Positions 30,428 through 33,850 of a stretch of DNA of 64,000 bases are shown here, piece after piece. A model generated the notes under the pieces. That model was not told the origin of the DNA and did not search any database. It was given only the letters and a program-made list of their open reading frames with translations. The stretch comes from Candidatus Zhuqueibacterota bacterium. Lineage in GTDB: Bacteria > Zhuqueibacterota > Zhuqueibacteria > Oceanimicrobiales > Oceanimicrobiaceae. Numbering within the stretch: the stretch's first letter is position 1; every line of letters starts with the position of its first letter. The stretch covers positions 1 to 64,000 of the forward strand of contig JAJDAD010000020.1 in the NCBI GenBank assembly GCA_029262055.1, written 5' to 3'. Both the position numbers and the translations under genes were made by a program.

Positions 30428-33400
30428 ATGAATAACACGAATCAAAAAGATAGATCGGGATCAGGTTGGGAAAAGGGGATCTGTGGAATTTGCCCTGCCG
30501 GCTGTTGGGTTGAAGTGGAGAAACAGGATGGCAAGATCACAGACATCAGGCCGGATGACGGCCATCCACTCGGAATGATCTGTCGGCGCGGCGAGCACAC
30601 ACCGGAGATTATCTACTCCGAGCACCGGCTGAAATACCCCATGCGACGGGTCGGTCCCAAAGGCACGCACGATTTTGAACGCATTTCCTGGGACGAAGCC
30701 TACGACGAAATCAGCAAGAATCTCAACCGGATCAAGAGTGAGTCCGGTCCCGAGGCCGTGTCGATTTATACCGGGCGTGGCGCCTTCGAACTTTCCTTGT
30801 GTGACATGTTTCAGCCAAAAGACGTCGCAGTCTCTTCCGCTTCCAACGTTTTGTTTCCGTTCGGTTCCCCAAATACCATGGGCGTGGGTGCCCTGTGCTA
30901 TGTTTCGTTCGCCATGATCGCACCACATGTCACCATGGGCCGCATGTTGGTCAACATGTTCACCGACATGGAGAATGCTGAACTGCTCGTCGTCTGGGGC
31001 GCTAACCCGGCGACGGACTCACCTCCGCTGGACATGAACCGGCTTGAAGCAGCGGCCCGGCGTGGTGCAGACATCGTGGTGATCGACCCCCGGAACACTG
31101 AGACGGCCAGGCGCACCGGAGCCCAATGGGTTCCCATTCGTCCGGGAACGGACGGGGCGCTGGCGCTTAGCATGATCGAGGTCATGATCGATGAAGACCT
31201 TTATAATGAGGACTTCGCAGACAAATGGTGTCATGGTTTTGACGAGCTCAGTACTTACACCCAGCATTTCCGGCCTGAGGTTGTGGAGAAAATAACCGGC
31301 GTTCCGGCTGAGACCATTCGCGATTTAGCCCGGCGCATCAGCAACGCAACAGGGGCCTGCCCGGTCATGTACACAGGCCTGGAATACTCCAACAGCGGCA
31401 TCCAGGCCATTCGCGCAGTGCTGACGCTTTTCTCGCTGGCCGGTCAACTTGACGTGCCCGGAGGGATCGGGCTTGCCATGCTTGACTCACATTTTCCCAT
31501 CAACCGTTCCTGTAATCAGAAGAACCCCAACATTGACCTTGCGGTCGCACGTGATAAAGTGCCGATCTACAGTGACTACCGGGGGGAATCGCATGCCAGC
31601 GGACTGGTGGATTCCGTGCTGAACGGCGATCCCTATCAGATTCGCGGCCTCATTATTCACGGTGCATCCCTACTTACGTCCTGGCCCCAATCGTCGATTT
31701 GGCGCGAGACGCTGTCCAAACTGGACTTCCAGGTGTGCATCGACCGGCAATTGACGGCGGATTCTGCCTATGCCGACATTGTCCTGCCGGCCACAACTAT
31801 GTTTGAAATCGACTCGTACATGGTTTATGGTCCGATTTTTCGTTTGCGGGAAAAGCTAACGGAACCGGTTGGGGAGGCGCGCAACGATTACCTGATCATG
31901 GCAGAATTGGCAGCTCGCCTGGGCTACGGCCACCTTTACCCGCAAACAGAGGAAGACTTGCTTCGCTTTGCGCTGCAAGGTTCCGGTTACTCTCTTGAAG
32001 ATGTAAAGGCTGCGGGGGGTACAGTTAAGCTGCCGACCCGAGTGATGGAATACCAAAAATGGCAAAAGGGCAGTCTGCGCGCCGATGGCAAGCCCGGCTT
32101 TGAAACACCGACAGGCAAGTTCGAAATCTGGTCAACCGTTCTGGAAGACTACGGTTACGACCCGCTACCAAAATACACCGAACCGGTTGAGGGCCCGCAG
32201 GCCAATCCTGAGCTATCTAAGAAATTTCCGCTGGTGTTCAACTCCGGCGCGCGGCCGCACACGGACTTTCGGTCTCAGCACCATGGCATCAAAGGGTTGG
32301 CAAAGGACAATCCGGAACCAACCGTGGAACTCAATTTTGAAGATGCTGCCGAGCGCGCCATCGCCAGCGGCGACCTGGTGCAAGTACAAACCGTCCGCGG
32401 TGCAGTCCCATTTCGCGCCAGGGTGAGTGACGAGATCGCCAAAGGCTGCATAGAGTGCAACATGGGCGGTGGCGGCCCTGTCGGCCCGAAGGCGTGGCAG
32501 GAGTGGAATGTCAACGAGCTGACCGATCTCGGCAACTACGACCCGATATCCGGGTTTCCGGTGTACAAGGCGCTGCTGGCTGAAGTAGAGAAGATAGAAG
32601 CCGGGACTGCTCGCAGCAAGAGGCAAGTGGCCAAAGCCGCCGCCTGTGGCCCGGTGTTCATCAACAACAAAGTGCCGAGGCAGGAGGCGCCCCGGCGCAT
32701 CGACCTGGACAATAACGCTACCACTGCGCTGGCGCCGGAGGTGCGGGAGGCGATGGCGCCGTTCATGGAGAGCTATCATGGCAATCCATCGAGCATCCAC
32801 GATGCCGGCCGCAACGCGCGTGAAGCCATCGAAAAAGCCAGGAGGCAAATCGCCAAGTTGCTCAACGTCCGGCCGCGCAGTATTATTTTTACCGGAGGCG
32901 GCTCCGAGGCGGACAATCTGGCGCTGAAAGGCGTGGCCTTTGCCAACCGGGAGAAGGGTAACCACATCATCACGACCAGCATCGAACATCCCGCCATACT
33001 GGCCGCCGGACGCTTTTTGCAGCGAAACGGCTACGACGTGACCTTTCTCGATGTGGACGCGGATGGCTGGCTCGCGCCGGACAAGCTCTACCGCGCTATC
33101 AAGGACACCACGATTCTTGCCTCAGTCATGATGGCGAACAACGAAGTGGGTACGGTTCTGCCTATCAGAGAGCTTTGCGCGGTGGCGCATGAACGTGGCG
33201 TTCTGTTTCACACGGACGCCGTGCAAGCCATTGGCAAATTGAAGGTAGATATCGAACACCTCAATGTCGACCTGCTCAGCCTGTCCGCGCATAAGTTTCA
33301 CGGGCCTAAGGGCGTGGGCGCGCTTTATGTCAAAAAGGGTACTCAGCTAGAACCGCTGATTCACGGTGGCAAGCAGGAGGGAGGTGTGCGGGCAGGAACT

Positions 33401-33850
33401 GAAAACGTAGCCGCTATCGTCGGTACGGGGAAGGCCGCCGAGTTAGCATCCCAGAAACTTGCCACCGTCGCAAGGATGCAAACCTTACGTGACCGGCTGG
33501 CGGCCGGGATACAGGAATTGATCCCGGAAGCCGTGCTCAACGGTCACCCGGATAACCGTCTCCCCAATACGCTCAATTTGACACTCCCCGAGTTGCGCGG
33601 GGAATCGGTGGTGGTCGCCATGGATCAAAATGGGATTTCGCTCTCTTCGGGCTCGGCTTGTAAGTCGGGTTCGCCCGATCCGACCCATGTCCTGATGGCG
33701 ATGGGGAAGAGCACCGATGATGCGCATTGCTCCATTCGCCTGTCCTTGTCAACCTACACGACAGCGGAAGACGTTGCCGGAACACTGCGCGCTTTGAAGC
33801 AAGTACTGGAGGAAATGGAAACCACCGTGAGGTTTCTCCCTTGTAAGTAG
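30428..33850 (+). CDS. Fusion: molybdopterin (bis-MGD) oxidoreductase catalytic subunit + group I (NifS/IscS-type) cysteine desulfurase
   Basis: N-terminus C19xxC22xxxC26..C52 [4Fe-4S] motif, FGSPN..ALC157Y, molybdopterin-binding C-terminal domain; from ~R757 IDLDNNATTALAPEV, SAHK956FHGPKGVGALYV, SSGSAC1078KSGSPDPTHVL; one uninterrupted frame. Confidence 0.95.
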   Translation: MNNTNQKDRSGSGWEKGICGICPAGCWVEVEKQDGKITDIRPDDGHPLGMICRRGEHTPEIIYSEHRLKYPMRRVGPKGTHDFERISWDEAYDEISKNLNRIKSESGPEAVSIYTGRGAFELSLCDMFQPKDVAVSSASNVLFPFGSPNTMGVGALCYVSFAMIAPHVTMGRMLVNMFTDMENAELLVVWGANPATDSPPLDMNRLEAAARRGADIVVIDPRNTETARRTGAQWVPIRPGTDGALALSMIEVMIDEDLYNEDFADKWCHGFDELSTYTQHFRPEVVEKITGVPAETIRDLARRISNATGACPVMYTGLEYSNSGIQAIRAVLTLFSLAGQLDVPGGIGLAMLDSHFPINRSCNQKNPNIDLAVARDKVPIYSDYRGESHASGLVDSVLNGDPYQIRGLIIHGASLLTSWPQSSIWRETLSKLDFQVCIDRQLTADSAYADIVLPATTMFEIDSYMVYGPIFRLREKLTEPVGEARNDYLIMAELAARLGYGHLYPQTEEDLLRFALQGSGYSLEDVKAAGGTVKLPTRVMEYQKWQKGSLRADGKPGFETPTGKFEIWSTVLEDYGYDPLPKYTEPVEGPQANPELSKKFPLVFNSGARPHTDFRSQHHGIKGLAKDNPEPTVELNFEDAAERAIASGDLVQVQTVRGAVPFRARVSDEIAKGCIECNMGGGGPVGPKAWQEWNVNELTDLGNYDPISGFPVYKALLAEVEKIEAGTARSKRQVAKAAACGPVFINNKVPRQEAPRRIDLDNNATTALAPEVREAMAPFMESYHGNPSSIHDAGRNAREAIEKARRQIAKLLNVRPRSIIFTGGGSEADNLALKGVAFANREKGNHIITTSIEHPAILAAGRFLQRNGYDVTFLDVDADGWLAPDKLYRAIKDTTILASVMMANNEVGTVLPIRELCAVAHERGVLFHTDAVQAIGKLKVDIEHLNVDLLSLSAHKFHGPKGVGALYVKKGTQLEPLIHGGKQEGGVRAGTENVAAIVGTGKAAELASQKLATVARMQTLRDRLAAGIQELIPEAVLNGHPDNRLPNTLNLTLPELRGESVVVAMDQNGISLSSGSACKSGSPDPTHVLMAMGKSTDDAHCSIRLSLSTYTTAEDVAGTLRALKQVLEEMETTVRFLPCK

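What the first reader, a model, noticed from the sequence alone, without database searches (positions are those of the whole stretch)
30428..33850. Molybdopterin oxidoreductase fused in one polypeptide to a complete cysteine desulfurase
Seen in sequence: one uninterrupted 1140-aa frame. Residues ~14-735 form a full Mo-bisMGD catalytic subunit: C19/C22/C26/C52 cluster motif, candidate Mo-ligand C157 in FGSPNTMGVGALCYVSF, and a C-terminal pterin-binding domain. After a short Ala/Lys-rich linker, residues ~757-1140 form a group I cysteine desulfurase with PLP lysine K956 and mobile-loop C1078 (SSGSACKSGS) intact. Established: some Mo/W-bisMGD enzymes (formate dehydrogenases) need sulfuration of the metal, with sulfur passed from IscS via FdhD. 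Inference: the fusion could be a self-sulfurating Mo enzyme, or could couple persulfide sulfur directly to a Mo-dependent reaction. No FdhD, electron-transfer subunit or membrane anchor is visible nearby. This is my main candidate for an undescribed system; I cannot tell whether such fusions are already catalogued.
Basis: partly seen in the sequence, partly recalled or inferred. Interest (0 to 1): 0.88.

Follow-up and report, generated by a model that had tools for sequence, protein, structure and literature searches.

The report
Oxygen-independent ergothioneine synthase (MES)
The fused molybdenum/cysteine-desulfurase gene is real, but it is a new member of an enzyme family described in 2022 that puts sulfur from cysteine onto trimethylhistidine to make the antioxidant ergothioneine without oxygen.

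Summary
In detail: 30428-33850 is one open frame of 1140 aa, a bis-MGD enzyme with a 4Fe-4S motif joined to a complete NifS/IscS-type cysteine desulfurase. It is neither an artefact nor undescribed. [quoted passage not shown] All nine functionally discussed residues are conserved here: the 4Fe-4S cysteines, Mo/W ligand C157, PLP lysine K956, and C1078, C1101 and C1139. A 1136-aa Calditrichota homologue that carries them at exactly the published positions is 60.5% identical. The genome encodes the partner enzyme EgtD (histidine methyltransferase, 397 bits) on another contig and no EgtB above cut-off. EgtD sits beside or near the fusion in 13 of 37 related loci and is present in 30 of 37 of those genomes. 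The self-sulfurating/FdhD framing is not needed, and FdhD is absent from the genome. New details: the window's protein lies in a clade distinct from the one that by residue numbering holds CaMES; the host carries three aa3-type oxidases, against 'exclusively anaerobic'; one side genus has the fusion without EgtD.

The parts
30428..33850 (+). Gene for a metallopterin-dependent ergothioneine synthase (MES), 1140 aa
   Evidence: ORF; domains; residues and orthologues; family described in PMC9516567
30467..32632 (+). Residues 14-735: 4Fe-4S plus bis-MGD (Mo/W) module
   Evidence: Pfam; best solved relative acetylene hydratase 2e7z, E 8e-69
30482..30583 (+). 4Fe-4S cysteine codons C19, C22, C26, C52
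   Evidence: sequence; conserved in every locus that covers the region
30896..30898 (+). C157, predicted single protein ligand of the Mo/W (CaMES C153)
   Evidence: conserved; published C153S nearly inactive
32633..32695 (+). Residues 736-756: Ala/Lys-rich linker
   Evidence: between domain matches; spacing C157-K956 is 799 residues, as in CaMES
32696..33847 (+). Residues 757-1140: NifS/IscS-type (group I) cysteine desulfurase
   Evidence: TIGR03402 499.8 bits, below its cut-off 530.75; PDB matches
33293..33295 (+). K956, PLP lysine (CaMES K952)
   Evidence: published K952A blocks ergothioneine production
33659..33661 (+). C1078, mobile-loop persulfide cysteine (CaMES C1074)
   Evidence: published C1074S about 2000-fold less product
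33728..33730 (+). C1101 (CaMES C1097; mutation only two-fold effect)
   Evidence: Ser in L028
33842..33844 (+). C1139, second relay cysteine near the C-terminus (CaMES C1135)
   Evidence: published C1135S about 2000-fold less product
24015..30265 (+). hisG-D-C-B-H-A-F-I operon upstream, same strand, 162-base gap before MES; histidine is the precursor of the substrate
   Evidence: NCBIfam; no promoter-like or terminator-like match in the gap. Not seen beside MES in other loci
34088..34633 (+). Uncharacterised 181-aa ORF downstream, with a 52% identical copy also downstream of MES in L013; possible operon partner
   Evidence: no Pfam match
34653..34683 (+). Terminator-like hairpin, 13 pairs, after the 181-aa ORF

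Best explanation
The gene encodes a metallopterin-dependent ergothioneine synthase. Proposed working, transferred from CaMES. (1) The C-terminal PLP desulfurase takes sulfur from L-cysteine, leaving alanine, as a persulfide on C1078. (2) The sulfur passes to C1139 and on to the N-terminal module of the same chain. (3) It becomes the terminal sulfido ligand of the bis-MGD Mo or W ion held by C157. (4) The C2 of the imidazole of N-alpha-trimethylhistidine, made by the EgtD encoded on another contig, attacks that sulfido; ergothioneine leaves and the reduced metal is re-sulfurated for the next turnover. Shown here: architecture, residues, orthology, EgtD in the genome, EgtD linkage in relatives. 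Published for CaMES: the product, the need for the desulfurase and relay cysteines (mutants), intramolecular transfer. Proposed by those authors, not proven: the chemistry of steps 3 and 4. Inferred here: that this protein does the same.
For: Same fusion and order as CaMES. Nine published positions map one to one; L138, a Calditrichota protein of 1136 aa, has C14/C17/C21/C48/C153/K952/C1074/C1097/C1135 exactly and is 60.5% identical. The nine are conserved through the loci that cover them, with one Ser for C1101 in L028, and in the common signature classes of 245 full-length homologues. EgtD in own genome 396.8 bits against cut-off 290.9, matching solved EgtD at E 2e-65. EgtD above cut-off in 30 of 37 genomes with the fusion and next to or near it in 13 loci, plus clade B locus L152. 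In the host phylum 6 of 6 clade A genomes have EgtD against 7 of 74 without the fusion (Fisher p 6e-6, relatedness ignored). Complementary distribution with EgtB: 6 of the 7 EgtD-positive, MES-negative genomes have a nearly full-length EgtB match; MES genomes have none.
Against: No activity has been shown for the window's clade as such: by residue numbering CaMES falls in the sister clade (60% identity), and I could not place the other three tested enzymes of the paper. EgtD is not in the window, and 7 of 37 genomes with the fusion lack an EgtD above cut-off (six with no match at all; incomplete MAGs may explain this). Three clade B genomes of one genus lack EgtD altogether.
Confidence: 0.91

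Rival explanations
1. A family member whose acceptor is another heterocycle (for example another histidine derivative), not trimethylhistidine.
For: Sequence does not prove substrate. Three genomes of one genus (G068-G070) carry fusions 55-58% identical to the window's and no EgtD, next to an ATP-grasp-like gene in the two whose flanks were read.
Against: Those proteins lie in the other clade. The window's own genome and its near relatives with the fusion all have EgtD.
Confidence: 0.06
2. A self-sulfurating Mo/W oxidoreductase (formate dehydrogenase-like): the desulfurase installs the sulfido ligand once, during maturation, replacing IscS-FdhD.
For: No FdhD in the genome; a formate dehydrogenase profile, TIGR01591, is the best NCBIfam match of the N-terminal part.
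Against: 286.6 bits against a cut-off of 666.25; C157 is followed by Tyr, not the His of formate dehydrogenases. In CaMES sulfur supply is needed for turnover.
Confidence: 0.02
3. Assembly or annotation artefact joining two genes.
For: None. A related copy (G024/L045) is split by a frame break, but inside the Mo module near residue 511-525, not at the junction.
Against: Full-length fusion in the roughly 240 database proteins listed and in many phyla.
Confidence: 0.005

Closest known systems
Metallopterin-dependent ergothioneine synthase MES of Caldithrix abyssi (PMC9516567)
   Same: Domain order, length (1140 vs 1136 aa), 4Fe-4S cysteines, Cys metal ligand, PLP Lys, two relay cysteines, partner EgtD in the genome
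   Different: About 60% identical to the protein with CaMES numbering (L138); one residue less between the third and fourth cluster cysteines (26 vs 27), which marks a separate clade; host has aa3-type oxidases; gene follows a his operon
Acetylene hydratase (PDB 2e7z)
   Same: Closest solved relative of the N-terminal module; 4Fe-4S plus bis-MGD, Cys ligand, no redox partner
   Different: No desulfurase domain; the Asp after the second cluster cysteine (catalytic Asp13, own knowledge) is Pro23 here
NifS/IscS cysteine desulfurase
   Same: PLP lysine, SSGSAC mobile loop, 41-47% identity to two stand-alone paralogues in the same genome
   Different: Fused; extra conserved C1101 and C-terminal C1139
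Moco sulfurase ABA3/MOCOS
   Same: Desulfurase fused to a Moco-related module, sulfur to Mo
   Different: ABA3/MOCOS uses a MOSC domain and matures other enzymes (own knowledge); here the partner is a catalytic DMSOR-family module

Membership tests
Metallopterin-dependent ergothioneine synthase (MES) | N-terminal bis-MGD module and C-terminal cysteine desulfurase in one chain | tested here: met
Metallopterin-dependent ergothioneine synthase (MES) | Four cluster cysteines, Cys metal ligand, PLP Lys, relay cysteines C1074 and C1135 | tested here: met
Metallopterin-dependent ergothioneine synthase (MES) | Histidine methyltransferase EgtD in the genome and no other sulfurising enzyme | tested here: met
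   EgtD; EgtB-like hits below cut-off and covering only the shared C-terminal part; EanB not tested
Metallopterin-dependent ergothioneine synthase (MES) | Host strictly anaerobic (as stated for homologues in the abstract) | tested here: not met
   three CtaD-like oxidases, one above cut-off; a host trait, not a trait of the enzyme
Metallopterin-dependent ergothioneine synthase (MES) | Makes ergothioneine from trimethylhistidine and cysteine | not testable with these tools
   needs expression
Formate dehydrogenase | Cys/Sec ligand followed by His; score above TIGR01591 cut-off; FdhD for sulfuration | tested here: not met
   C157-Tyr158, 286.6 vs 666.25 bits, no FdhD
Acetylene hydratase | Catalytic Asp next to the second cluster cysteine | tested here: not met
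   Pro23 in its place
Stand-alone NifS (TIGR03402) | Score above curated cut-off | tested here: not met
   499.8 vs 530.75 bits

The most novel reading that the evidence does not exclude
The fused family is wider than ergothioneine: some members, such as those of genus g38 with no EgtD and an adjacent ATP-grasp-like gene, thiolate a different heterocycle; and the clade holding the window's protein works in hosts that respire oxygen, so the enzyme is not confined to anaerobes.
Probability: 0.15. Interest if true: 0.5.

Novelty: new member of a known kind. Interest (0 to 1): 0.24.

Why it matters
It adds a well-supported member, in a host with oxygen-respiring genes, to a recently found third route to ergothioneine. 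It gives a two-clade picture of the family and many further sequences for choosing an enzyme that can be purified: CaMES could not be purified full length, and no full-length fusion is in the PDB copy searched.

Tried and rejected
Formate dehydrogenase or FdhD-type self-sulfuration (profile score, C-Tyr motif, no FdhD). Acetylene hydratase (Asp replaced by Pro). Assembly artefact (fusion widely conserved). EgtD inside the window (none; it is on contig C47). An EgtU-type ergothioneine transporter next to EgtD: the substrate-binding part hits EgtUC best in the PDB, but three residues named as EgtU-specific (G244, F293, Y337) are ProX-like here (F, Y, F; my reading of the alignment), so it is rather a betaine-type transporter. 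Rfam scan of the window: nothing. MobA search: only sub-cut-off matches, as in most control genomes, so uninformative. No structure was predicted: the tool returns no coordinates, so the C1078/C1139 to Mo distance could not be measured.

Full report
Observation. The frame 30428-33850 (+) is intact and encodes 1140 aa. Pfam finds the Fe4S4, Molybdopterin and Molydop_binding domains followed by Aminotran_5, all above cut-off. The fusion is not an assembly accident: the 119 best database hits other than the query itself are of nearly the same length and carry the same main Pfam domains, and a scan of species genomes gave 37 loci in many phyla.

Identity. [quoted passage not shown] The paper reports for C. 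abyssi MES the cluster cysteines 14, 17, 21 and 48, metal ligand C153, PLP lysine K952, and cysteines 1074, 1097 and 1135. The window's protein has C19, C22, C26, C52, C157, K956, C1078, C1101 and C1139. A Calditrichota homologue, L138, has exactly the published positions and a length of 1136 when started at its first in-frame ATG. It is 60.5% identical to the window's protein (66% in the Mo module, 54% in the desulfurase).

Two clades. A tree of 58 fusions splits with full support into the window's clade A (26 residues between cluster cysteines 3 and 4) and a clade B with 27, holding L138, Scalindua, Jettenia, Kuenenia, Nitrospirota and genus g38. The paper's numbering (21 to 48) puts CaMES in clade B. 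The window's clade is therefore not the one with CaMES; where the paper's other three active enzymes fall is unknown to me.

Genomic support. The genome holds one EgtD at 396.8 bits, above the 290.9 cut-off, on contig C47, followed by a betaine-type ABC transporter. EgtB matches stay below cut-off and cover only the C-terminal part of the profile. Among 83 genomes of the phylum, all six with a clade A fusion have EgtD. Of seven other genomes with EgtD above cut-off, six have a nearly full-length EgtB match (three above cut-off, three at 318-343 bits) and the seventh is 70% complete. The Fisher value of 6e-6 ignores relatedness; five of the six share a family. In the wider set EgtD exceeds the cut-off in 30 of 37 genomes and lies within the fetched flank in 13 of 37 loci, directly next to the fusion in 12; clade B locus L152 has it about 2 kb upstream.

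Mechanism. From the paper: desulfurase-dead and relay-cysteine mutants lose about 2000-fold of product, complementation between chains fails, and the desulfurase-dead enzyme still exchanges sulfur between ergothioneine and trimethylhistidine. The authors propose attack of the imidazole on Mo(VI)=S. Conservation of the relevant residues supports transfer of this mechanism to the window's enzyme; it is not a test of it.

What differs from the literature. (1) The abstract states that homologues are encoded exclusively in anaerobes. This genome (97% complete, 1.7% contaminated) has three aa3-type oxidase subunit I genes on two contigs, one above the CtaD cut-off and two somewhat below, so the host probably can respire oxygen; use of the enzyme under oxygen is not shown. 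(2) The gene follows hisGDCBHAFI by 162 bases on the same strand with no promoter-like or terminator-like match between, and a strong hairpin follows the next ORF. Co-transcription with histidine synthesis is plausible, but the arrangement is peculiar to this genome among those examined. (3) Genus g38 has fusions with all nine residues conserved in the two full-length copies but no EgtD in two genomes of 97-98% completeness.

Verdict. Real, well conserved and functionally coherent, but already known as a kind. Interest is low to moderate, for the clade structure, the aerobic host and the EgtD-less side genus.

Noticed in passing
G069:C3:313617-317003 (L126:9609-13007) and G070:C39 (L127:9494-12892): Fusion homologues in a genus without EgtD, followed in both species by an ATP-grasp-like gene of about 320 aa (only a weak, sub-cut-off Pfam match in one); upstream genes are syntenic, downstream ones differ.
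   Followed up: partly
G000 contig C47, L128:4459-7842: EgtD followed directly by an ABC ATPase and a fused binding-protein/permease of the OpuC/EgtU kind, ProX-like at the three EgtU-diagnostic positions; may move trimethylhistidine, ergothioneine or betaine.
   Followed up: partly
window 39816-42891: Two further class V aminotransferase genes flanking a DUF302 gene, about 6 kb or more downstream of MES with no evident link to it.
   Followed up: no
window 1728-4710: Sulfatase next to a radical SAM/SPASM protein with a SEC-C tail, the usual pairing of a sulfatase with its maturase.
   Followed up: no
G024:C39:22872-26242 (same gene in L045) and G074:C52 (same gene in L031): MES copies broken by a frame break near residue 511-525 and by one in-frame TAG respectively; sequencing error or decay.
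   Followed up: no
window 34088-34633: 181-aa ORF without Pfam match downstream of MES, conserved downstream of MES in L013 (52% identity).
   Followed up: no
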